Positions 39,034 through 50,518 of a DNA stretch of 64,000 nucleotides are shown piece by piece. A program made the translations under genes and the position numbers. Source of the stretch: Clostridia bacterium (GTDB lineage: Bacteria > Bacillota > Clostridia > Acetivibrionales > DSM-27016). A model generated the notes under the pieces. The model saw nothing but the letters and a program-made list of their open reading frames with translations, was not told the origin of the DNA and made no database searches. The stretch covers positions 1 through 64,000 of the forward strand of contig JAOAIJ010000010.1 of assembly GCA_026414765.1 (NCBI GenBank). The letters are read 5' to 3'. Position 1 is the first letter of the stretch. Every line of letters begins with the position of its first letter.

Positions 39034-42000
39034 TTATGTATTAGCTACTGCTACAAGGCTCCACTCCCCGGTGCCCGACGAATTTTTCGCCCGTACCCTA
39101 TAAACGTGTTGTGTTCCTGACAATTCATCACTTAAAGTAAAACTAGTATTTGCAGTACTACCTGCTACCAAGCCATCAACCTCAATTTCATAATATTCAG
39201 CACCTATTACCGTGTCCCATGTTAACAGAGAGTCTGTATTACTGAATTTGAGATTTAGCGGAATTTCCGGAACCGGACTATACAGCTGGCTTTGAGGTAT
39301 TATTTCTTTAGCCAGTCTGTCGCACGACCACATAAGCTTCATAGACGCAGCTCCTGTATAGTCAAAATACTCAAGTCTTATCTCATATTTCTGTCCAGCG
39401 GTAAGGTCTATAGTTCCGACTTCTTCTCCGAAGGAATCCGTCCATCTGTCAATTATCTTCTGTCCGTTTACCCATAACCTTACTCCGTTGTCTGCAAAGG
39501 CATGGAATTTATATGTTCCAGTATACCTTGGCTCGACGTACCCTGTCCATCTTACGCTGAAAAATTCGTTTTTTACTGAAGTATCAGGCGAACCTGTCCC
39601 CCAATTAAAGTCTATAGAACTGTCAATCCTTGTGAGTATTTTTGTATCCAGGTTCCAGCCATTAAAGTACTCTGCACTTAATCCATTACCGTTTCCAACT
39701 GGCGCAAGCAGTGTCCTTTTTGCAAGGGCTGAACTCCACTCACCTGTACCTGATGAATTCTTTGCCCTAACTCTGTAAGTATGTTGTGAGTCGGGTTGCA
39801 AGCCTGTATGCGTATAACTTGTACCTGTTCCGTTACTTATTACAGTACCGTCAACCTCTATATCATACCCTTCAGCTTCTATTACACTTCCCCATGTAAC
39901 CGTGATTGTCGTCTCTGTTCCATTAGCACTTATACCTGAAGGTGTCTCCGGTACCGGCAGATACAGATAACTCTGAGGGATCACTTCCTTGCTCTGCTTA
40001 TCACTGGACCACATAAGCTTTACAGATGCTGCCCCTGTATAGTCGAAATATTCAAGTCTTATCTCATATTTCTGTCCTGCGACAAGGTCTATAGTTCCTA
40101 CTTCTTCTCCGAAGGAATCCGTCCATCTGTCAATTATCTTCTGCCCGTTTACCCATAACCTTACTCCGTTGTCTGCAAAGGCATGGAACTTATATGTTCC
40201 GGTATACTTAGCCAGGACATAGCCTGTCCATCTTGCACTGAAGAATTCACTCTTTACCGAAGTATCAGGAGAACCTGTTCCCCAGTTGAAATTAACTGCG
40301 CTGTCTATCCTTGTAAGCTTCTTGGTATCCAGATTCCACCCGTTAAAGTATTCTGCCTTTAATCCTGTCCCATTACCCTGTGCAGGTAATGTCCTCACCG
40401 TTACAGGCGCACTCCACTCTCCTGCACCGGAATTATTCTTTGCTCTCACCCTGTAAACATACTGTGTATCAGGGAGTAATTTTGTATGTAAATAATTATT
40501 GTTATTTGCTTCGCCAACATATGCCCCATTAATCTCAATATCATATTTTTCTGCACCAAGTACACTATCCCATGTTATTGAAATCTCAGATTCAGAGGAA
40601 AGAGATAATATATTTGCCGGACTATCAGGAGTCGGGCAATATAACTGGCTCTGAGGGATTATTTCCTTTGCCAGTCTGTCACACGACCACATAAGCTTTA
40701 CAGATGCTGCCCCTGTATAGTCGAAATACTCAAGTCTTATCTCATATTTCTGTCCTGCAACAAGGTCTACAGTCCCCACTTCTTCCCCAAAGGAGTTAGT
40801 CCATCTATCGACTATCTTCTGCCCGTTTACCCATAACCTTACTCCGTTATCCCCAAAGACATAAAACTTATATGTTGTTGTATATCTTGGTTGGACATAA
40901 CCTGTCCACCTTGCACTGAAGAATTCACTCTTTACTGAAGAATCAGGCGTACCTGTTCCCCAATTGAAGTTAACAGTACTGTCTATCCTTGTAAGTTTCT
41001 TGGTATCCAGATTCCACCCGTTAAAGTATTCTGCTTTTAGTCCTTTACCAATACCAACCGGTGCAAAATTAGTACGCTGCACAACCGGAGCGCTCCATCC
41101 ACTAGCCCCACTGCCGTTTACTGCTCTTACCCTATAAGTATATTGAGTATCGGCATACAACCCGTTATGTACAAAACTTGTAGATTCATTACATTTTATT
41201 ACTACTCCATCAGCCTCAACTTCATAGCCCGATGCCCCCTCCGCTTTATCCCATGTGACAGTAATGGTATTGTCCGTTGGAGACGTATTAATATTTTGAG
41301 GCGTTGATGGCTTAGAGATTTTGCTAATTGTCCCGATCACTACACTCCACTCGCCTGTAGCCGAATCATTCCGTGCTCTTACCCTGTATGTATGCTCCGA
41401 ACCTGCCTCCAGACTTTCATGTGTAAAGCTTGGTGCCTGTACGCTCACAATAGCGCCATCATCTATTTCTACATCATAACCTGTCGCGCCAGGAACTGTA
41501 TCCCATTCCAATGTAATAGTACTTTCAGTGTTAAACGCCCTGAAATTATCAGGTACTCCTAACTGGGTCACCCTAGTCTGCATTATGCTCCATTCGCCCG
41601 AAACAACCGCAGTTTTTGCTCTTACTCTGAATGAGTACACTGTACCGGGAAGGGGATTGATATCAGTATAAGATGTATTATCACCCAGCTCCACTACAGT
41701 TCCGTTTACTTCAATTTCATAGCTTGTAGCACCTGAAACTGCATCCCATATTATAGTGATACCCGTTTCATTTACTACTGAGCTGATGTTTGAAGGTGTG
41801 CCCAATGATGTACTGTTAGTTACCGAATCGCTCCAGTCTCCTGTTACATCCTGAGTTTTTGCCCTCACTCTGTATACATACTGAGTTCCTGGAACAATCC
41901 CGCTGATTGTGTAAGTAGTCGCCTCAGCATTATCTGCAAGATTTTCATTGATTTCTATATCATAACCTGTTGCTCCTGTTACAGGCTCCCAGGTAATCGT

Positions 42001-44199
42001 TAAAGAGTCCCCGTTCACACTCTCTGTGATACCTGAAGGAATTCCGAGTAGTGTTGCCTTTGCTACAGCATTACTATACTCTCCTAAAGCATTTCCAGCC
42101 TTAGCCCTTACTCTATATACATGATTTCCTCCAGGTATCAAGCCGTCATGGGTATAGGAAGTAACATTTCCAGCATCTATTACACTTCCATCAACTTCAA
42201 CGTCATACCCTTCCGCGCCTTTAATTGCTTCCCAAATAACAGTAATTGTATTCTCTGTTGCTGCACAGCTCACATTCTGTGGTACCCCAACAGGTATAAC
42301 CGCATTAACAGGAACACTCCAATTTCCAACAATAAACGCGGTCCTGGCTCTTACACGGTATACATAACTGTAACCCGGTGTCACATCACTAATTGTATAG
42401 CTGGTACTTGTACCGTTATCTGTTATGGTGCCGTTTACTTCTATATCATAACCTACAGCCCCATCGACAGCATTCCATTGTGTTAATATACTGTCTTCAG
42501 TTACAGATGCGGTCACATTTTGAGGAATTCCAAACAAAGTATTTACTGTAGTACTCCCACTCCACTCCCCGGCTATCAGACTATTCTTTGCTTTTACCCT
42601 ATATGTATGAGTAGTTCCGGGCAGTAGTCCGGTATGAACATAAGAAGTATTTGTCCCATTTTCAATTACATTGCCGTCAACTTCAATTTCATAACTCTCC
42701 GCTCCTGCCACTCCATCCCAGGTAAGAGTAATCTCATTTCCTGACGGTGTGACATTAAAATACGAAGGAACTCCCAGCTTTGTTACCTGACTTGCAATAT
42801 CTGACCATTCACTCCGGGCATAAGCAGTCTTTGCCCTAACCCTGTAAACATGCTGTGTTCCCGGATTTAAGCCACTAAATCTATAAGAAGTTGCTTCACC
42901 TACATCTATGGCAGTTCCGTCAGCTTCTGCTTCATAACCGTCAGCTCCTGCCACCGGATTCCATGCTAAGGTTATAGATGTTTCGTCACATACAGTCGAC
43001 AATCCGGAAGGTGTGTCCAATAGTGTTATTGCAGTTACAGGCTGACTCTTCTCACTTTCGGCAAAAGCTGTCTTAGCCTTCACTGTATAGGAATGCATGG
43101 TACCGGGTATAATATCTGCGTGTGTATACTCTGTATCCTGACCGCTGTATATTACTGTACCGTTTTCTTCAACATCATAGCTAGTCGCTCCCTCAACCTT
43201 ATCCCATCCTATTGTGATATATGTGGTATTCGGTTTTACTATTACATTTAAAGGTTTATCCAACAGAGTCGTTTTATCAACAACCGAGCTCCAGTAACTG
43301 GCAGTACCGATACCTCTTGTTCTGACCCTATACTTGTGAGCAGTACCCGGCGTAATATTTTTATGGACGTATTTTGTATCTGTACTGTTGTTTACAATAA
43401 CCCCATCAACCTCTATATCATATCCAGCAGCCCAATTGACCTTATTCCATGTAACAGTAACAGAGTTAAAATCTGCATCTGCAGATATACTGACAGGTGC
43501 AGAAATATAAGGCTTTCTTGCCGCTGACTTATTTGCAGTAGCTTTAAGGGTAGTGCCGTCAGGATTTTTTATTGTCCAGACCAAAGTGTCTCCACTGAAT
43601 ACAGTTGAAAATTTATCGATCTGAAGACCTGATGAAAATACAGCAGGGGGAATAGTAGTTTCATCTGTCACAGTCCCTGTAAACATTGAGTCGGCTTGAG
43701 GTACATCGATAGAAAAAGAGTTGATATTCAGCCATCCCCAGAATGCTGTACAGGTTCCATCCGAATTTAGCACCACATATTCCAGTATTGGCTTAACAGG
43801 AGCTGCGACCACTTTCTTAACAGGATTGCTCCATTCACTTACTTCTGTTGAATACCTTGCTCTCACTCTGTATGTATGCCACGATTTTGGTTCCAGATTT
43901 TTGTGTATATATGTATTGCTTTTTTTATTATCTTTTACTACACCATCTATTTCTATATCATACCCTGTAGCTTTGGATTCTTTATTCCACTTAACGAATA
44001 CCGTAGTGCCTATTAGCTCAGCTTTAAGATTCTTTGGAATACCCAGCTTACTTTCTTTTTTATCGGATTTTTCATTTTTAGCAATAGTGCTATCCGAAGA
44101 TATGCGGTTTAATATACTTTCATTCGCAATTGCGAAAGTCTGTACAGGGAATATGAACAGCATTAAAATCGCAACTAATGTACTAAGCCTTTTCCCCAT
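39034..44199 (-). CDS. Giant secreted protein with 14 FN3 and 3 PA14 domains
   Basis: A 1,721-aa protein with a signal peptide (LSTLVAILMLFIFPVQTFAIA). FN3 domain 1 is at about residues 50-135; an unclassified stretch of about 100 residues follows, then FN3 domains 2-11 in tandem, each marked by GYDIEVDG-like and HxYRVRAK-like motifs. The last third alternates PA14-FN3-PA14-FN3-PA14-FN3. PA14 domains have LKAEYFNGWNLD, GVRLWVNGQKI and YEIRLEYFDYTG, and are carbohydrate-binding in many proteins. No LPXTG, SLH or dockerin module is present, so it is probably released or held non-covalently. Start: ATG behind GGGGGGTTGGG. A role in the matrix or adhesion is inferred from the neighbouring exopolysaccharide operon. 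Confidence 0.85.
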   Translation of the reverse strand: MGKRLSTLVAILMLFIFPVQTFAIANESILNRISSDSTIAKNEKSDKKESKLGIPKNLKAELIGTTVFVKWNKESKATGYDIEIDGVVKDNKKSNTYIHKNLEPKSWHTYRVRARYSTEVSEWSNPVKKVVAAPVKPILEYVVLNSDGTCTAFWGWLNINSFSIDVPQADSMFTGTVTDETTIPPAVFSSGLQIDKFSTVFSGDTLVWTIKNPDGTTLKATANKSAARKPYISAPVSISADADFNSVTVTWNKVNWAAGYDIEVDGVIVNNSTDTKYVHKNITPGTAHKYRVRTRGIGTASYWSSVVDKTTLLDKPLNVIVKPNTTYITIGWDKVEGATSYDVEENGTVIYSGQDTEYTHADIIPGTMHSYTVKAKTAFAESEKSQPVTAITLLDTPSGLSTVCDETSITLAWNPVAGADGYEAEADGTAIDVGEATSYRFSGLNPGTQHVYRVRAKTAYARSEWSDIASQVTKLGVPSYFNVTPSGNEITLTWDGVAGAESYEIEVDGNVIENGTNTSYVHTGLLPGTTHTYRVKAKNSLIAGEWSGSTTVNTLFGIPQNVTASVTEDSILTQWNAVDGAVGYDIEVNGTITDNGTSTSYTISDVTPGYSYVYRVRARTAFIVGNWSVPVNAVIPVGVPQNVSCAATENTITVIWEAIKGAEGYDVEVDGSVIDAGNVTSYTHDGLIPGGNHVYRVRAKAGNALGEYSNAVAKATLLGIPSGITESVNGDSLTITWEPVTGATGYDIEINENLADNAEATTYTISGIVPGTQYVYRVRAKTQDVTGDWSDSVTNSTSLGTPSNISSVVNETGITIIWDAVSGATSYEIEVNGTVVELGDNTSYTDINPLPGTVYSFRVRAKTAVVSGEWSIMQTRVTQLGVPDNFRAFNTESTITLEWDTVPGATGYDVEIDDGAIVSVQAPSFTHESLEAGSEHTYRVRARNDSATGEWSVVIGTISKISKPSTPQNINTSPTDNTITVTWDKAEGASGYEVEADGVVIKCNESTSFVHNGLYADTQYTYRVRAVNGSGASGWSAPVVQRTNFAPVGIGKGLKAEYFNGWNLDTKKLTRIDSTVNFNWGTGTPDSSVKSEFFSARWTGYVQPRYTTTYKFYVFGDNGVRLWVNGQKIVDRWTNSFGEEVGTVDLVAGQKYEIRLEYFDYTGAASVKLMWSCDRLAKEIIPQSQLYCPTPDSPANILSLSSESEISITWDSVLGAEKYDIEINGAYVGEANNNNYLHTKLLPDTQYVYRVRAKNNSGAGEWSAPVTVRTLPAQGNGTGLKAEYFNGWNLDTKKLTRIDSAVNFNWGTGSPDTSVKSEFFSARWTGYVLAKYTGTYKFHAFADNGVRLWVNGQKIIDRWTDSFGEEVGTIDLVAGQKYEIRLEYFDYTGAASVKLMWSSDKQSKEVIPQSYLYLPVPETPSGISANGTETTITVTWGSVIEAEGYDIEVDGTVISNGTGTSYTHTGLQPDSQHTYRVRAKNSSGTGEWSSALAKRTLLAPVGNGNGLSAEYFNGWNLDTKILTRIDSSIDFNWGTGSPDTSVKNEFFSVRWTGYVEPRYTGTYKFHAFADNGVRLWVNGQKIIDRWTDSFGEEVGTIDLTAGQKYEIRLEYFDYTGAASMKLMWSCDRLAKEIIPQSQLYSPVPEIPLNLKFSNTDSLLTWDTVIGAEYYEIEVDGLVAGSTANTSFTLSDELSGTQHVYRVRAKNSSGTGEWSLVAVANT
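39275..39700 (-). repeat. PA14-coding DNA repeat, copy 3
   Basis: This is the segment of the surface protein gene encoding the third PA14 domain. It is very similar at DNA level to the copies at about 39957-40385 and 40634-41060; stretches around the SFGEEVG and YEIRLEYFDYTG codons are almost identical, implying recent duplication or gene conversion. Confidence 0.75.
39957..40385 (-). repeat. PA14-coding DNA repeat, copy 2
   Basis: Second PA14 segment. It shares with copy 3 the codons for FHAFADNGVRLWVNGQKIID nearly base for base, and with copy 1 those for LDTKKLTRID. Confidence 0.75.
40634..41060 (-). repeat. PA14-coding DNA repeat, copy 1
   Basis: First PA14 segment. It is slightly more divergent (FYVFGDNGVRLWVNG, DRWTNSFGEEVGTVDL) but still highly similar in DNA to the other two. 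Confidence 0.75.
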
Positions 44200-44599: not shown

Positions 44600-44866
44600 G
44601 TGAAAATCAAAGAAGGTTTCCTGCTCCGTGAAATTGCCGGGTCATGGGTAGTAGTGCCTGTGGGTAATCGGGTAGTCGAGTTTAATGGTTTATTGACCCT
44701 TAGTGAAAGCGGCGCACTCCTGTGGAGATTAATGGAAAAAGGTACAGAGAAGGACGCATTGGTTGGATTACTCCTGAAAGAATATGATATCGATAGTACT
44801 ACTGCAGAAGCTGACGTAGAAGAGTTTATATCATTAGTATCTGAAAAAGGGTTGTTTGAACGATGA
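44600..44866 (+). CDS. PqqD-family RiPP recognition element protein
   Basis: An 88-aa stand-alone PqqD-like domain: a winged-helix-type fold with VVPVGNRVVEFNGLLTLSES and ALLWRLMEKGTEKDALVGLL, then the C-terminal helix TTAEADVEEFISLVSEKGLF. Such RREs bind the leader peptide of a precursor and present it to the modifying enzyme; in lasso clusters the same fold is the B1 protein. GTG start with AGGAGGG at 6 nt. The stop overlaps the ATG of the radical SAM gene by 4 bp, so the two are translationally coupled. Confidence 0.9.
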   Translation: MKIKEGFLLREIAGSWVVVPVGNRVVEFNGLLTLSESGALLWRLMEKGTEKDALVGLLLKEYDIDSTTAEADVEEFISLVSEKGLFER

Positions 44867-45987
44867 GCACGTCATGGAGCCAGCTAAATGACAAGATAAT
44901 GGAACAGGCTGCGAAAAAAAAGGTGCCTGTCGTAGGGCAATTCGAATTAACTCCGCGCTGCAATCTACAATGCAAAATGTGCTATATATGCAGACGGGAA
45001 AATGATTATGAGATACTGGCTGAAGAAATTTCAGCCCACGCTTGGATACAGCTTGCCGCAGGTGCTCGCGATGCAGGAATGCTCTATCTGCTGCTTACCG
45101 GTGGAGAAGTATTTTTGCGGCAGGATTTTAAAACCATATATGAAGAAATCTCTATGATGGGATTTGTCACAGAAATATTTACTAATGCAACATTGATAAC
45201 ACCTCAGGTAGCAAAATGGCTTGGGAGAATCCCGCCCTCAAAAGTAGCAGTATCAATATACGGCGCCTCTCCCGAAACATACAGGGTAGTCTGCGGTAGT
45301 GCCAGCAGCTACGAACGTACTGTACGGGGTATAGATTTATTGCTGTCTGAGGGTATTACTGTAGATTTGAGAACAACCATAATAAAAGGAAATAAAAACG
45401 ATTTTACGAAGCTTGCAGACTTTGCAGAAAAGCGGAATCTTGAATTCGGGATTGTGAACTATATATCCCCCCGCCGGGAAAAGGGCGATACCTCCCCGGA
45501 AGCTGAACGCTTGTCTCCTGACGAGTTAGCCGAATTTGAAGTATATGTACAAAGCTATTATCAAGATAAGGACCCGGATAAGAAGGAAAATGAACAGACT
45601 TTTGAGAGCTGTTCTGATAATACTGCTGCCGATAGACTGAAAATATCCTATTTACCGGATAATTCATGCGAATCATTCAGATGTACAGCAGGACACAGTT
45701 CTTTTTGGATAACGTGGAATGGGCAAATGATACCTTGCGGACAAGTAAATACTCCCACAGTTTCCCTAATTAAGAACAATTTTTCTGAAGCCTGGACTAA
45801 GTTACAGCGTCTCTGTTCACGTGTCCCTGCCTGCAAAGAATGTGATATTTGTTCTCTTAGCGAGTATTGTATGTCATGCCCTGCAGTACTTGAAGCAGAA
45901 ACCGGAGCTTTTGATAAACCTTCACCATACCTTTGCGAGTTAGCAAAGAAAAGAATGAATCTGAAACTAATTAATAAAAATACATAA
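44863..45987 (+). CDS. Radical SAM/SPASM peptide maturase
   Basis: A 374-aa radical SAM enzyme. The SAM cluster motif is TPRCNLQCKMCYIC (C33-x3-C37-x2-C40), followed by the glycine-rich LLTGGEVFLR. The C-terminal SPASM domain begins CTAGHSSFWITWNGQMIPCG and continues with CKECDICSLSEYCMSCP and a final YLCELAK, enough Cys for two auxiliary [4Fe-4S] clusters. Such enzymes make thioether, C-C or C-O cross-links, or other changes, in ribosomal peptides. It is coupled to the PqqD gene upstream and followed after 31 bp by the 41-aa precursor gene. The exact bond formed cannot be read from sequence. Confidence 0.93.
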   Translation: MSTSWSQLNDKIMEQAAKKKVPVVGQFELTPRCNLQCKMCYICRRENDYEILAEEISAHAWIQLAAGARDAGMLYLLLTGGEVFLRQDFKTIYEEISMMGFVTEIFTNATLITPQVAKWLGRIPPSKVAVSIYGASPETYRVVCGSASSYERTVRGIDLLLSEGITVDLRTTIIKGNKNDFTKLADFAEKRNLEFGIVNYISPRREKGDTSPEAERLSPDELAEFEVYVQSYYQDKDPDKKENEQTFESCSDNTAADRLKISYLPDNSCESFRCTAGHSSFWITWNGQMIPCGQVNTPTVSLIKNNFSEAWTKLQRLCSRVPACKECDICSLSEYCMSCPAVLEAETGAFDKPSPYLCELAKKRMNLKLINKNT

Positions 45988-46018
45988 TTGTTCGTATTTA
46001 GTACCGGAGGTGTCTCTA

Positions 46019-46144
46019 ATGAAAAAATATGTAAAACCAACCCTTGAATTCGTTGAACTCAGGCCGGAAGAAAGACTGGCCGCATGTGTATTTGTAGGAC
46101 GAAACAAAGGGAGGAACTGTCCTCTGAACCGGACAGCCAGTTAA
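46019..46144 (+). CDS. RiPP precursor peptide (41 aa)
   Basis: A 41-codon frame with a strong ribosome-binding site (CGGAGG, then TGTCTCTA, then ATG). The leader begins MKKYVKPTLEFVELRPEERL and contains Y4-x2-P7-x-L9, the YxxPxL motif bound by RREs in lasso-peptide systems. The presumed core after the leader starts near residue 21 and reads AACVFVGRNKGRNCPLNRTA, then the final Ser41. It has two Cys (C23 and C34) and ends in Ser. Its place right behind the radical SAM gene, its size and its composition mark it as the substrate of the cluster. It falls below usual ORF length cut-offs. Confidence 0.85.
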   Translation: MKKYVKPTLEFVELRPEERLAACVFVGRNKGRNCPLNRTAS

Positions 46145-46158
46145 TTCGGACCATGTTA

Positions 46159-46183
46159 AGGCCTGTCTCAAAAAGACAGGCCT
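46159..46183 (+). terminator. Hairpin between precursor and downstream RiPP genes
   Basis: A perfect 10-bp stem, AGGCCTGTCT/AGACAGGCCT, with loop CAAAA, 14 bp after the precursor stop codon. It is followed by GTTATCTG, not a T run, so it is more likely a partial terminator or a 3' stabilising structure that raises precursor mRNA over the rest. Confidence 0.65.
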
Positions 46184-46216
46184 GTTATCTGATTATGCTT
46201 ACAGGAGAAATATCAT

Positions 46217-47095
46217 ATGTTGAATCTGAAAATAAGTGATATAAATATTGATATAATGTTTGACACTGATGATTTCAACAAGTCTGACGATACGGATTGT
46301 ATAGCCAGTCGTTTTAAAGCATTCCTTTCAAAGCCTGCACAGGCAAATCCTGACATGACGGTATACTTGAAGCATAAAGACTATATACCTCAGCCTGAAG
46401 GCATTGTCTTATATGATGAAGGAATTAAGTGGACCAAAAACTATAATAATGCTTTTTATATGTCAATCAGTATGCATGACATAGCTTCAACCGAGATAAT
46501 CTCACTGCTTGAGGTAAACAATAAATGGTCAAAAGCTTGCATAACCTGTATTAACGATACCTCAAAAAGTAGCTGTTCTATGGCTGTGCCGTTAAGTGAA
46601 ATTCTCTTCCGAAACAGAATATTATTTTACGGAGGAATAATCCTTCATGCTTCAGCTATCAGGTGGGCGGGAAAGGGGATTTTGTTTTCAGCACCGGCCG
46701 GAACCGGAAAATCTACACAGGCAAAACTCTGGAAAAAACTGATGGGGGCTGAAATTCTAAATGACGACCGGCCTGCTGTAAGGATAGTAGACACGCAGAC
46801 TAATATATACGGTACCCCATGGAGCGGTTCCACACCCTGCTTTTCAAATAGTAATTCGCCATTATCAGCAATAATACTATTGGAACAATCAGATGAAAAT
46901 GTTATTAAGCATCTTTCGGTTGAGGCTGCGCTACCCCTTATTATGCCCAGATGCTTTCTGCCATATCACGACAGTTTGTTAATGGAAATGGCACTGGAAA
47001 ACCTGGAAAAAATCATTGGGACATCTCCTGTTTACTTGCTGAAGTGTCGTCCCGATAAAGAATCTGTGGAGCTGGTATATAGATGCATAAGGTAG
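46217..47095 (+). CDS. HPr-kinase-like kinase of the RiPP cluster
   Basis: A 292-aa protein with the HprK/PadeK-type catalytic domain in its second half: LHASAIRW, then Walker A SAPAGTGKSTQAKLW (160-167 core), and the acidic LNDDRPAVRI (DD at 183-184), as in HPr kinases and their RiPP relatives. The N-terminal half is not related to the HprK N-domain. In paeninodin-type lasso clusters the homologous kinase phosphorylates the C-terminal Ser of the precursor, and the precursor here ends in Ser. Ribosome-binding site AGGAG at 9 nt. It overlaps the peptidase gene by 13 bp. Confidence 0.85.
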   Translation: MLNLKISDINIDIMFDTDDFNKSDDTDCIASRFKAFLSKPAQANPDMTVYLKHKDYIPQPEGIVLYDEGIKWTKNYNNAFYMSISMHDIASTEIISLLEVNNKWSKACITCINDTSKSSCSMAVPLSEILFRNRILFYGGIILHASAIRWAGKGILFSAPAGTGKSTQAKLWKKLMGAEILNDDRPAVRIVDTQTNIYGTPWSGSTPCFSNSNSPLSAIILLEQSDENVIKHLSVEAALPLIMPRCFLPYHDSLLMEMALENLEKIIGTSPVYLLKCRPDKESVELVYRCIR

Positions 47096-47541
47096 TAGAA
47101 TTAAGTTCGGCTAGGATATTTCCATTAATTAATGAATTGCTTGATAGTGGATCAAGTGTACGCATTACTGTCACAGGCACAAGTATGTACCCTTTTCTAC
47201 GTAATAGTGTCGATAGTGTAGAACTTTCTCATACTGATTTTAAAAACCTGCATCGTGGAGACATCATACTGGTTCATACCGATAATAAGGAGTATATCCT
47301 CCATAGGGTAGTAAGAAAAGAGAAGGATTACCTTTATATATGTGGTGATGCCCAAAAACACATGGATGGGCCAATATACCCCAGGAATATCCGGGCTCTT
47401 GTAACCGCAGTCTGGCGAGAGGGGAAGCGAATAAAACATGACAATTTCCTATGGAAGTTACTATCTTCAACTTGGCTTTATTTATTACCCTTCAGGGCTT
47501 TTATTATCAATGCATACTGGAAGCTAAAAGGCTTCAAATAA
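47083..47541 (+). CDS. S24/S26-family peptidase, likely leader peptidase
   Basis: A 152-aa protein with the S26 active-site box VTGTSMYPFLR (nucleophile Ser34), LHRGDIILV, and YILHRVVR (His74). A His at this position, in place of the Lys of bacterial signal peptidases, resembles the Sec11/archaeal type. It lacks a clear N-terminal membrane helix; a hydrophobic stretch, FLWKLLSSTWLYLLPFRAFI, is near the C-terminus. Because the ABC transporter has no C39 peptidase domain, this enzyme is the best candidate for removing the leader. It overlaps the kinase gene by 13 bp. Confidence 0.82.
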   Translation: MHKVVELSSARIFPLINELLDSGSSVRITVTGTSMYPFLRNSVDSVELSHTDFKNLHRGDIILVHTDNKEYILHRVVRKEKDYLYICGDAQKHMDGPIYPRNIRALVTAVWREGKRIKHDNFLWKLLSSTWLYLLPFRAFIINAYWKLKGFK

Positions 47542-47562
47542 CTCTTTGTGGGAGGACTTCAG

Positions 47563-49239
47563 TTGAAAACCCGCTTTGCAATTATAAGATGGATGCTAAG
47601 CCAGGTGAGACCCTTCGGTACTTCACTGTTTTTAGTTATAGCACTTGGAGCCATAATACCCCTAAGCGGAGTTGGCATGGCTATTGCTTCTAAAGAATTG
47701 ATTGACTCTGCTTCAGCCGGCGAGTGGCAAAAAACTCTATTTTGCGCTGCTTTATTTATTGCACTCATACTTGTACAGGTAATCGTGCAGTCCGCCTCCT
47801 CTGTAATGTCTGTACGTATATCGGAATCAGTATCCAATAGTATCCGTAAAAACCTTGTTTTTCATATGACACAAGTTCAATGGTCAAACTTTTCAAAATA
47901 CCACAGCGGAGATATATTAACCAGAATAATCAGCGATGTCTCTTCTGTTACAAATGGTATTGTAAATAGTTTACCAGGAATGCTTGCACTTGTGGTGCAG
48001 TTTCTGGCTGCTTTTATCACATTACTGGTGTTCGAGCCCGCATTAGCCATACTTGCTATTATTTTAGCTCCTTCTGCTGTATTATTCAGCAGGTTTCTTG
48101 GTCATCGCCTGAAACAGCTTCACACTGCTATACAAGAAACAGAAAGTGAATACCGTTCTTTTCTCCACGAAATTCTGCAAAATATACCTGTCATCAAAGC
48201 GTTCTGTGTCGAAAAAGAGTATAGCATTAGATCCGGCAGCATCCTGAGTAAAAAATTCGGGTTGATAATGAAGCGCAGCCGTATACAGGCAGCAGCAGGA
48301 TCCATGATTTCACTCAGCTACTGGATAAGTTACTTTATTGCTTTTTTTTGGGGAGTTATGAATCTCTCAAAGGGCATCGCTACCTTCGGAACCCTCGCAG
48401 CTTTCCTTCAACTGGTAGAACAAATACAGACGCCCTTCTTTGAACTTTCAAATACACTTCCTCAGTTCATTTCCTCAATCTCCTCTGCCGACAGGCTAAG
48501 AGAACTCGAAAAGCTGGAACCTGAGAAAGTGAATTGCCCAATACCACCTTTACCTTCTGCTGGAATAATCGCAGAGAATGTTTGTTTTTATTATGATCAG
48601 AGCAAACCTGTTTTAAAGGATGTCTCCATAATAATAAACCGGGGCGAGATAGTAGGTATATCCGGTGCGTCAGGTGAAGGCAAGACCACCCTTATACTTA
48701 TGCTGCTTTCACTTATTACTCCACAAAAAGGTCACATATATTTTGTAGATGAGTCGGGGAGGCGTATAGAAGCATCAGCAGATAGCAGGGCAATGATATC
48801 ATATGTGCCTCAAGGCAGTTCCTTGTTCTCTGGAACCATAGCAGAAAATTTACTGGTAGGTAACCCGGCTGCTACTGATACAGAATTGGAAGCTGCCTTA
48901 TGCTCAGCATGTGCCTGGGAATTTATAAAAGATTTACCCGAAGGTATGAATACAAAAATAGGTGAGCGGGGGCTGGGTCTGTCCGCAGGGCAGGCGCAGC
49001 GAATCGCCATCGCCCGGGCAATGCTCCGTAATGTGCCTGTTCTGATTTTAGATGAAGCAACCTCCCAGCTCGATATTGATACAGAAATTAGAATACTAAA
49101 GTCAATTAATACTTTAGATCCATCCCGCACATGCATTATTATATCCCACAGACCTGAAGCACTCAGGATGTGCCATAGGGTAGTAAGGCTGGAAAACCAG
49201 TGTATCAGTGAAACGAGAAGTGAAGTTACTTCAGATTAA
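47563..49239 (+). CDS. ABC exporter (fused permease and ATPase) of the RiPP cluster
   Basis: A 558-aa half-transporter with six transmembrane segments in the first 300 residues and an ATPase domain with Walker A SGASGEGKTTLI, signature GLGLSAGQAQRIA and Walker B VPVLILDEATSQLD. There is no N-terminal C39 or other peptidase domain. As a homodimer it would export the mature peptide and could give self-immunity. Start: TTG 47563 with GGAGG at 7 nt; an in-frame GTG at 47548 lacks support. Its last 14 bp overlap the convergent NTase gene. Confidence 0.9.
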   Translation: MKTRFAIIRWMLSQVRPFGTSLFLVIALGAIIPLSGVGMAIASKELIDSASAGEWQKTLFCAALFIALILVQVIVQSASSVMSVRISESVSNSIRKNLVFHMTQVQWSNFSKYHSGDILTRIISDVSSVTNGIVNSLPGMLALVVQFLAAFITLLVFEPALAILAIILAPSAVLFSRFLGHRLKQLHTAIQETESEYRSFLHEILQNIPVIKAFCVEKEYSIRSGSILSKKFGLIMKRSRIQAAAGSMISLSYWISYFIAFFWGVMNLSKGIATFGTLAAFLQLVEQIQTPFFELSNTLPQFISSISSADRLRELEKLEPEKVNCPIPPLPSAGIIAENVCFYYDQSKPVLKDVSIIINRGEIVGISGASGEGKTTLILMLLSLITPQKGHIYFVDESGRRIEASADSRAMISYVPQGSSLFSGTIAENLLVGNPAATDTELEAALCSACAWEFIKDLPEGMNTKIGERGLGLSAGQAQRIAIARAMLRNVPVLILDEATSQLDIDTEIRILKSINTLDPSRTCIIISHRPEALRMCHRVVRLENQCISETRSEVTSD

Positions 49240-50455
49240 GCCAGCGCAGAAGACCGGTACGCTCTTCAAAGGTCGCCAGGGATCTACGCGGATGTAAAAA
49301 GGCTGTCCTGACTATAGAAACAAAGTTCTTACGGCAGATATTGTAAAGCAACCTGTGCAGCCATGCCGCAGGAATAAGAAAAGGAGATCTACGTGCATAG
49401 GAATACCTTTTTCTCAACCTGTCTGCCGTTGGAAACAAAAATGATATATAATATTTTATTTTCCCGGACGAATTTTCAGAACCGTCGTAATTTACATATC
49501 TTAGTAGTGAGTTCCCTATATGCCTGCTGAAGTCTGTATGTCCATGGACTCCACCGGAAAGAATATCGTTTATAAATACTTCCAGATATGGATGGTCGGC
49601 GACCTCCCGGCAGAATAGCCCATTTGGCAACTCCATTCCAAACAACTTATGACAGGTAACAAAAACCGCAAATACAAATCTTTCTATACCAAATGCTTTT
49701 ATATGGCTATATAAATAATCCCAGTCCAATTTATCCTTATAAGACTCTATAAAAATCACTATATCACATAACTGACGAAGTCCAAAACCATATGAAGCTA
49801 TATGCTCTGCCAAATGCAGGAACATATATAACAAGCTATCATCTGATGAAAGCAGTAAAACAGGCATACCGTTTATTTGAGCCGGAGCTGTACTACTCCA
49901 TATGCTCTTTTCAAAGCATTCAGCCGCCTTTAGGCTTTCATGGCTCATAAGCATATTATGCAGCTCTATTACCAGATCTGCATAGCGTAAAACTGTATGC
50001 TTGAAATCAGAGTCATCCTCTACGTAACCCATACAAAGAAGAAGATTTTTTGCCCTTTTCTTATGTTCATCACGCACGAGAATATCTACATCTGCCATAG
50101 TCCGCAATTCCGGCTGCGGATATAGCTCCCGGAGTACTATACCCTTTAATGCAACTACCGGTATCCCTGCATCATTAAAGCACCTGAACACTTCCCCCAA
50201 TTTTTCCATATGCTGTATCTGTGTCATACCGGCAAAAAGGACTGCCCTCTCCCATTTTAACATAAGGTCTCTGTCAGGACCGTATTCGGGACTCAAATCC
50301 TTTACCGCAGGATACATTAAGGCATACACATCATGTGACACTGCTTGCTCAAATATGCTTTTCCAATCAGCTTCTCCGATTACAAAGTCCTGAGGTCTCT
50401 TCCCCCGTATCGCCAAAGAAAGAAGGTATACAAGTACTTGTTGGTCTATATCCAT
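49226..50455 (-). CDS. Nucleotidyltransferase-fold protein (NTP_transf_5 type)
   Basis: A 409-aa protein of the NTase family that accompanies lasso and related RiPP clusters. The NTase core is GIPVVALKGIVLRELYPQP followed by RTMADVDILV (Asp-x-Asp) and LVIELH; the rest is helical (LLYMFLHLAEHIASYGFGLR). Start: ATG 50455 behind GGGGGTG. It is on the opposite strand, but its end overlaps the ABC gene, and homologues in pseudomycoidin-type clusters modify the phosphorylated C-terminal Ser, so a role in this pathway is likely. Substrate unproven. Confidence 0.82.
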   Translation of the reverse strand: MDIDQQVLVYLLSLAIRGKRPQDFVIGEADWKSIFEQAVSHDVYALMYPAVKDLSPEYGPDRDLMLKWERAVLFAGMTQIQHMEKLGEVFRCFNDAGIPVVALKGIVLRELYPQPELRTMADVDILVRDEHKKRAKNLLLCMGYVEDDSDFKHTVLRYADLVIELHNMLMSHESLKAAECFEKSIWSSTAPAQINGMPVLLLSSDDSLLYMFLHLAEHIASYGFGLRQLCDIVIFIESYKDKLDWDYLYSHIKAFGIERFVFAVFVTCHKLFGMELPNGLFCREVADHPYLEVFINDILSGGVHGHTDFSRHIGNSLLRYVNYDGSENSSGKIKYYISFLFPTADRLRKRYSYARRSPFLIPAAWLHRLLYNICRKNFVSIVRTAFLHPRRSLATFEERTGLLRWLNLK

Positions 50456-50518
50456 ACAGCACCCCCGTATACCCATTTTATCATACTTTTCTGTCGTTTA
50501 AGCAGGGCCACATAAAAA

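What the first reader, a model, noticed from the sequence alone, without database searches (positions are those of the whole stretch)
44600..50455. RiPP cluster combining a lasso-peptide chassis with a radical SAM/SPASM enzyme
Seen: PqqD-type RRE, radical SAM/SPASM enzyme, 41-aa precursor, HPr-kinase-like protein, S24/S26 peptidase, ABC exporter and NTase-fold protein in one compact block with overlapping genes. Known: RRE, kinase, S24/S26, ABC and NTase accessories are typical of Firmicutes lasso-peptide clusters of the paeninodin/pseudomycoidin type, which also need an asparagine-synthetase-like cyclase and a transglutaminase-like peptidase. Neither is present here. Inference: the radical SAM enzyme replaces the macrolactam cyclase, giving a cross-linked and probably C-terminally phosphorylated peptide of a type I do not recognise.
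Basis: partly seen in the sequence, partly recalled or inferred. Interest (0 to 1): 0.88.

Follow-up and report, generated by a model that had tools for sequence, protein, structure and literature searches.

The report
Radical-SAM phosphopeptide cluster beside polysaccharide genes
The block encodes a small peptide and a set of enzymes that probably cross-link it, phosphorylate its last amino acid, cut off its leader and export it; related blocks occur in many anaerobic bacteria, often beside surface-polysaccharide genes, and the product is still unknown.

Summary
In detail: RRE, radical SAM/SPASM enzyme, 41-residue precursor, HprK-like kinase, SipW-like peptidase, ABC exporter and NTP_transf_5 protein form one block. 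The genome has two further copies and, on another contig, a separate true lasso cluster. In the best 80 of 232 related loci the kinase lies near the radical SAM gene in 73 and lasso cyclase/B2 probes hit 0; in one genome a lasso cluster lies about 18 kb away. Precursors share a YxxP leader and cysteine-rich variable cores; in 49 of 62 labelled rows all end in Ser. The window precursor's only Ser is its last residue. Many clusters, the window's included, lie beside polysaccharide genes. Minus the radical SAM gene, this is the published LPP gene set (PMC13381572), whose main text never mentions radical enzymes. Best reading: cross-linked, C-terminally phosphorylated, perhaps glycosylated peptides linked to surface polysaccharide. 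Chemistry untested. New variant of a known kind.

The parts
44600..44866 (+). PqqD-type discrete RRE (GTG start)
   Evidence: PF05402 56.8 bits; D72 kept in 73 of 74 aligned RREs
44863..45987 (+). radical SAM/SPASM peptide maturase, 374 aa
   Evidence: PF04055; C33/C37/C40 and six SPASM cysteines invariant in 50 rows; model nearest SkfB 6efn Z 25.5, rmsd 3.4, 289 aligned, tied with SuiB 5v1s_A Z 25.0, rmsd 3.8, 319 aligned
46019..46144 (+). precursor peptide, 41 aa; leader YVKPTLEFVELRPEERLA, core with C23 and C34, only Ser is the C-terminal S41
   Evidence: class A leader shared by 32 distinct precursors
46159..46183 (+). 10-bp stem-loop between precursor and kinase genes, possible attenuator or 3' stabiliser
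   Evidence: -20.6 kcal/mol for 46145-46215, z -2.48; hairpins after some but not all related precursors
46217..47095 (+). HprK/PEPCK-fold kinase, 292 aa
   Evidence: model pLDDT 94.5; PEPCK Z 14.8 and HprK 1ko7_A E 1.1e-6; H144, K165, D183, D184 present here; H144 78/79, K165 79/79, D184 78/79 in the alignment
47083..47541 (+). SipW/S24-S26-type serine peptidase, likely leader peptidase
   Evidence: S34, H74, D89 kept in 33 of 33; weak family scores
47563..49239 (+). ABC exporter (TTG start likely; GTG 47548 possible)
   Evidence: PF00664 and PF00005 over cut-off; best NCBIfam hit MsbA 278.9 bits against 602
49226..50476 (-). NTP_transf_5 protein, PsmN/LppN-like
   Evidence: PF14907 201.3 bits
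21676..38754 (-). adjacent exopolysaccharide/capsule operon (context, not part of the peptide cluster)
   Evidence: Wzz, AAA_31 (CpsD-like), CpsB_CapC, Bac_transf, GMD, ManC, epimerase, Polysacc_synt, four GT4-type proteins, Wzy_C, VanZ

Best explanation
A biosynthetic cluster for a radical-SAM-modified phosphopeptide built on an LPP/paeninodin-type chassis. The RRE binds the YxKP leader and hands the precursor to the radical SAM/SPASM enzyme, which most likely forms thioether (sacti- or ranthipeptide-like) cross-links from the core cysteines C23 and C34. The HprK-like kinase phosphorylates the C-terminal Ser41, and the NTP_transf_5 protein may put a hexose or nucleotidyl group on that phosphate. 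The SipW-like peptidase cuts after the leader, near EERLA, and the ABC exporter releases the product. The product probably acts at the cell surface in connection with the neighbouring exopolysaccharide. Shown here: gene content, conservation of catalytic residues, recurrence, neighbourhood. Inferred: each chemical step, their order, the cleavage site and the role.
For: Recurrence: in 80 loci PqqD lies within 9 kb of the radical SAM gene in 70, HprK in 73, S24 in 31, ABC in 21, NTase in 24; many loci are cut by contig ends. Radical SAM and HprK distances correlate (Mantel r 0.886, 71 pairs, 0 of 999 permutations as high). Precursors: core Cys 70 of 914 residues in class A against 4 of 700 in leaders, and 2.2% in ORFs of 150 aa or more; two or more Cys in 28 of 32 class A, 29 of 29 class B, 4 of 4 class C. 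C-terminal Ser: 12 of 32, 29 of 29, 1 of 4, against 111 of 1591 ORFs of 150 aa or more; three further divergent precursors also end in Ser (L164, L167/L169, L168). Kinase residues, SPASM cysteines, peptidase Ser/His/Asp. Fold matches. Polysaccharide markers: at least one in 28 of 69 loci of 9 kb or more against 3 of 45 control stretches; two or more in 23 of 69 against 0 of 45. Known functions: PadeK/ThcoK phosphorylate C-terminal Ser and PsmN adds hexose to phospho-Ser (PMC9266682, passages); LppK and LppS act in LPP biosynthesis (PMC13381572).
Against: No product, mass or activity data. In the two-peptide part of class A (for example L023, L025-L028, own copy B) precursors do not end in Ser although the kinase is intact; 12 of 62 labelled rows have no Ser-ending precursor and 1 is mixed. 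L073 and L079 have Ser-ending precursors but no HprK found. The known HKDD motif is incomplete in the wider family: the first Asp is Gly in 57 of 79. LppK and BsfK phosphorylate internal Ser, not the last one (PMC13381572, PMC10368454). A few precursors with the same leader have 0 or 1 Cys (4 of 32 class A). Conserved Cys do not prove thioethers. The SPASM domain and the kinase pass no curated cut-off. Loci are related, so counts are not independent.
Confidence: 0.6

Rival explanations
1. Same cluster logic, but the radical SAM enzyme does something other than Cys thioethers (C-C or ether cyclophane, epimerisation, backbone change), and the two cysteines form a disulfide or bind metal.
For: The fold resembles many SPASM enzymes of different chemistry: SkfB, SuiB (C-C), anSME, PqqE. 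No NCBIfam maturase model is passed. Some precursors with the same leader lack Cys.
Against: Cys are enriched in cores and nearly absent from leaders across three precursor classes.
Confidence: 0.25
2. It is an ordinary LPP cluster and the radical SAM gene is incidental.
For: RRE, kinase, SipW-like peptidase, NTase, exporter and polysaccharide neighbourhood match LPP.
Against: The radical SAM gene is tied to kinase and precursor in 73 of 80 loci, and its distances follow the kinase's. The loci were found through the radical SAM enzyme, so this does not show how many kinase clusters lack it. The leader differs from the LPP consensus and cores are Cys-rich.
Confidence: 0.06
3. The peptide is consumed to make a small cofactor or is a PqqA-like source, rather than a secreted peptide.
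For: PqqD plus SPASM architecture is shared with PQQ and mycofactocin systems.
Against: Exporter, kinase and NTase; hypervariable cores; up to three precursors in one cluster (L023).
Confidence: 0.05
4. A lasso cluster whose cyclase and leader peptidase lie elsewhere in the genome.
For: The genome has a lasso cluster on contig C14, and one relative has a lasso cluster about 18 kb away.
Against: That lasso cluster has its own RRE, B2, cyclase, kinase and a fitting precursor. 31 of 36 relatives' genomes have no Transglut_core3 match over cut-off. Core cysteines and leader end do not fit.
Confidence: 0.04

Closest known systems
Linear polyphosphorylated peptides, LPP (Popov et al., Nat Commun 2026, PMC13381572; abstract, sections 6, 11, 12 and passages seen)
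   Same: Discrete RRE, HprK-like kinase, SipW-like signal peptidase, NTP transferase, MsbA-like exporter, YxxP leader, no macrolactam cyclase in the cluster, embedded in capsular polysaccharide loci.
   Different: LPP main text names no radical SAM enzyme; LPP leader consensus YxxPxVLxHQxIxFETxxS is not met here; LPP were described from Bacillota, here also Armatimonadota- and Caldiserica-labelled MAGs; cores here are Cys-rich and often end in Ser.
Paeninodin/pseudomycoidin-type lasso peptides (PMC9266682, passages)
   Same: RRE, C-terminal Ser kinase, NTP-transferase homologue, exporter, YxxP-type leader.
   Different: No cyclase, no B2 peptidase; a radical SAM enzyme and core cysteines instead.
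Sactipeptides/ranthipeptides and other SPASM-matured RiPPs
   Same: RRE plus SPASM maturase, Cys-rich cores; model nearest SkfB and SuiB.
   Different: Kinase, NTase and SipW-like peptidase are not part of those systems as I know them (recalled); thioethers not shown.
SynChlorMet cassette (NCBIfam ScmC/ScmD/ScmE/ScmF)
   Same: PqqD relative, HprK-like ScmC and SPASM enzymes in one cassette (names).
   Different: All curated cut-offs missed: ScmE 94.4 of 400, ScmF 73.7 of 400, ScmC 27.3 of 125.
Radical-SAM-linked lasso-like discrete RREs of RRE-Finder (PMC7470986, passages)
   Same: [quoted passage not shown] this cluster may fall among them.
   Different: The main text gives no kinase, precursor family or polysaccharide link for them ('kinase' 0 occurrences).

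Membership tests
LPP | discrete RRE | tested here: met
   PF05402 56.8 bits against 23.4
LPP | HprK-like kinase | tested here: met
   PEPCK/HprK fold and catalytic H, K, D; no curated model passed
LPP | archaeal/SipW-type signal peptidase with Ser/His/Asp | tested here: inconclusive
   S34, H74, D89 in 33 of 33, but TIGR02228 34 of 51.85 and PF00717 21.5 of 23.3; whether D89 is the counterpart of LppS D93 was not settled
LPP | NTP transferase and MsbA-like transporter | tested here: met
   PF14907 and PF00664/PF00005 over cut-off; MsbA is the best NCBIfam hit, under its cut-off
LPP | no macrolactam cyclase or B2 in the cluster | tested here: met
   no PF00733 or PF13471 match on contig C10
LPP | capsular polysaccharide locus | tested here: met
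LPP | leader YxxPxVLxHQxIxFETxxS | tested here: not met
   window leader YVKPTLEFVELRPEERLA; only YxxP fits
LPP | linear product modified by phosphate alone | not testable with these tools
   a radical SAM maturase is present; needs mass spectra
LPP | RRE in the LPP clade | not tested
   published LPP RRE sequences were not at hand
Lasso peptide | Asn-synthase-like cyclase in the cluster | tested here: not met
   5 matches in the genome, none on C10; 0 of 80 loci by the own-genome cyclase probe
Lasso peptide | transglutaminase-like B2 peptidase in the cluster | tested here: not met
   1 match in the genome, on C14; 0 of 80 loci by probe, a weak probe
Lasso peptide | discrete RRE with YxxP leader | tested here: met
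Sactipeptide/ranthipeptide | SPASM-type radical SAM maturase | tested here: met
   no curated subfamily model passed
Sactipeptide/ranthipeptide | Cys thioether in the product | not testable with these tools
   two core Cys only
SynChlorMet cassette | ScmE/ScmF/ScmC at curated cut-offs | tested here: not met
   94.4/400, 73.7/400, 27.3/125

The most novel reading that the evidence does not exclude
The radical-SAM cross-linked peptide is coupled through its phosphorylated C-terminal Ser to a sugar or directly to the exopolysaccharide, so that the cluster makes a peptide-polysaccharide conjugate: a ribosomal peptide as a built-in part of a bacterial capsule or biofilm matrix.
Probability: 0.12. 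Interest if true: 0.87.

Novelty: new variant of a known kind. Interest (0 to 1): 0.62.

Why it matters
If right, radical SAM peptide chemistry and peptide phosphorylation meet in one pathway, and a family of cross-linked phosphopeptides sits inside polysaccharide loci of many anaerobes (14 of 391 sampled genomes of the class, own genome included). That makes two open questions testable: what the kinase/NTP-transferase pair of lasso and LPP clusters is for, and why such peptides live beside capsule genes (called unknown in PMC13381572, section 12). L035 carries a radical SAM set next to an LPP-like set, which gives a natural comparison of one chassis with and without the radical enzyme.

Tried and rejected
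Lasso cluster with missing parts: rejected. Of 36 relatives' genomes searched (36 of the 80 loci were given), 11 had a PF13471 match at E 0.001 and 5 over cut-off. My cyclase probe saw 5 of the 6 fetched lasso stretches and the B2 probe 6 of 6 at E 0.01, two of them above the 1e-4 used, so absence by B2 probe is weak.

Known NCBIfam peptide systems: none passes its cut-off for radical SAM, kinase or the six precursors tried. PDB sequence search gave nothing for the kinase at E 1. Rfam found only a tRNA in the window. The 10 paper searches found no paper that describes this radical SAM plus kinase cluster; the library holds open-licence papers only, and supplements were not seen. Strict link of kinase with C-terminal Ser: rejected as a rule because of the exceptions given above. 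A phylum search with the LPP-like kinase of L035 found it in 3 of 398 genomes, too few for an RRE tree, which I did not build.

Limits of the counts: precursor lists needed a start codon, RBS-like letters and YxxP; the class B filter partly used C-terminal letters such as CYH, though not the last residue; at least one precursor (L030, second, Ser-ending) was missed by the class A filter; for, 7 loci were labelled by hand. In one search, 11 of 80 test loci and 15 of 60 control stretches were dropped as shorter than 9 kb; controls come mostly from contig starts; two of 14 markers come from L008 and L017, and L017 is itself a test locus. In one search at least five of 14 stretches repeat loci.
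Full report
What is there. The block at 44600-50476 holds a PqqD-type RRE, a radical SAM protein, a 41-residue precursor, an HprK-like kinase, an S24/S26-type peptidase, an ABC exporter and, convergent, an NTP_transf_5 protein. RRE and radical SAM genes overlap by 4 bases, kinase and peptidase genes by 13. A 10-bp stem-loop follows the precursor gene.

The radical SAM enzyme. In 50 aligned relatives C33, C37, C40 and the SPASM cysteines C274, C292, C327, C330, C336 and C339 are invariant; C358 is kept in 90% or more. The model (pLDDT 91.4) matches SkfB 6efn (Z 25.5, rmsd 3.4, 289 aligned) and SuiB 5v1s_A (Z 25.0, rmsd 3.8, 319 aligned), which are tied; the 5wgg entry on thioether formation scores 22.7 and PqqE 22.1. 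It is therefore a RiPP-type SPASM maturase by fold. No NCBIfam equivalog cut-off is reached. Its chemistry cannot be read from this.

The kinase. The model (pLDDT 94.5) has the PEPCK/HprK fold: PEPCK 1oen Z 14.8, rmsd 4.1, 237 aligned, and Foldseek lists HprK 1ko7_A at E 1.1e-6. Among 79 aligned kinases (78 from these loci and the genome's own lasso kinase) the His is kept in 78, the Walker Lys in 79, the second Asp in 78; the first Asp only in 16, Gly in 57. The lasso kinases' known motif is His-Lys-Asp-Asp (PMC9266682, passage). The window kinase has all four.

The peptidase and RRE. Ser34, His74 and Asp89 are kept in 33 of 33, in line with the Ser/His/Asp of LppS (PMC13381572, section 11), although curated scores fall short. 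RRE residue D72 is kept in 73 of 74; in LppB an Asp binds the Tyr of YxxP (passages). That the two are equivalent is my inference.

Paralogues and a real lasso cluster. The same genome has two more radical SAM copies on contig C6 (53 and 54% identical). One sits with two precursors, kinase, peptidase, exporter and NTase; the other with RRE, precursor and kinase. On contig C14 there is a separate lasso cluster: RRE, B2, kinase, cyclase and a fitting precursor ending in Ser.

Relatives. A scan of genome contigs found 232 relatives, best 80 kept. Within 9 kb of the radical SAM gene: PqqD in 70 of 80, HprK 73, S24 31, ABC 21, NTase 24, lasso cyclase and B2 probes 0; many loci are cut by contig ends. 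In 14 stretches from a class-wide search, HprK is present in 13 (one is cut off), lasso probes in none; at least five of them repeat earlier loci. Prevalence is 14 of 391 genomes of the class, own genome included. Radical SAM and kinase distances correlate (r 0.886, 71 pairs, 0 of 999 permutations).

Precursors. Three main classes share YxxP. Class A (window): Y.KP......ELR.EERLA then a short core; 32 distinct. Class B (mostly rumen and gut MAGs): Y..P then SQ.IA-like leader end and cores with 3 to 5 Cys; 29 distinct. Class C: Y..P...AQFENVFT-like; 4. On the radical SAM tree class A is one side of a branch (SH-aLRT 95), class C too (94) (quick method). Cys make up 70 of 914 core residues in class A and 4 of 700 leader residues. 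C-terminal Ser: 12 of 32, 29 of 29 and 1 of 4, against 111 of 1591 longer ORFs. Counted by radical SAM rows, 49 of 62 labelled have only Ser-ending precursors, 12 none, 1 mixed; 21 of 83 rows have no label. Related sequences are not independent draws. The exceptions cluster in the two-peptide part of class A, where the kinase is intact; there an internal Ser or Thr may be the target, as for LppK and BsfK. L073 and L079 have Ser-ending precursors but no HprK was found.

Neighbourhood. In the window, the minus strand from 38754 down to 21676 is a polysaccharide operon. With 14 marker proteins, 28 of 69 loci of 9 kb or more have at least one marker against 3 of 45 control stretches from the same genomes, and 23 of 69 against 0 of 45 have two or more (Fisher p 7e-5 and 2e-6, related loci counted apart, so optimistic). 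41 of the 69 show none with this marker set.

What it is closest to. PMC13381572 (May 2026; abstract, sections 6, 11, 12 and passages seen) describes LPP: RRE, HprK-like kinase, SipW-like peptidase, NTP transferase and MsbA-like exporter in capsular loci, YxxP leaders, no cyclase. Its main text has no occurrence of 'radical' or 'SPASM'. Locus L035 holds a class C radical SAM set and, 3.2 kb downstream, an RRE, a kinase and a peptidase with precursors whose leaders fit the LPP consensus by eye. RRE-Finder (PMC7470986, passages) had already seen about 300 lasso-type discrete RREs beside radical SAM enzymes. The window cluster works like LPP with a radical SAM step added; because its leader misses the LPP consensus I do not file it as a member.

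Mechanism. Most likely order, inferred: RRE binds leader; radical SAM enzyme cross-links the core at Cys; kinase phosphorylates S41, the only Ser; NTP_transf_5 protein decorates the phosphate, as PsmN adds hexose in pseudomycoidin; peptidase cuts near EERLA; exporter releases the product. Thioether chemistry I hold at about one in two, C-terminal phosphorylation at about two in three. The bold reading, a peptide joined to polysaccharide, rests on the neighbourhood and PsmN analogy alone.

Noticed in passing
L097 (own genome contig C14), 4557-8409: A separate lasso cluster with RRE, B2, HprK-like kinase, cyclase and a precursor ending in Ser.
   Followed up: partly
L035, 13609-15700: LPP-like set (RRE, kinase, peptidase, two FET-type leaders) just downstream of a radical SAM class C set in a Thermincola MAG; possible bridge between the two families.
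   Followed up: partly
window 46217-47095, residue C277 of the kinase: A Cys near the C-terminus is kept in 78 of 79 kinases; no role known to me.
   Followed up: no
L029, 9985-10833: A second kinase-like gene where the catalytic His position reads Lys and the second Asp Glu: possibly a dead copy.
   Followed up: no
L008, 12371-13216: Kinase of the third own-genome copy has NGD instead of NDD, and its precursor ends in Phe.
   Followed up: no
L023 8401-8625, L025 8456-8677, L028 8103-8393, L031 7266-7445: Extra precursors with the same leader but 0 or 1 Cys, located next to the NTase or a second kinase; perhaps phosphorylated only.
   Followed up: no
window 39034-44199, minus strand: 1721-aa protein with fibronectin type III and PA14 domains between the polysaccharide operon and the cluster.
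   Followed up: no
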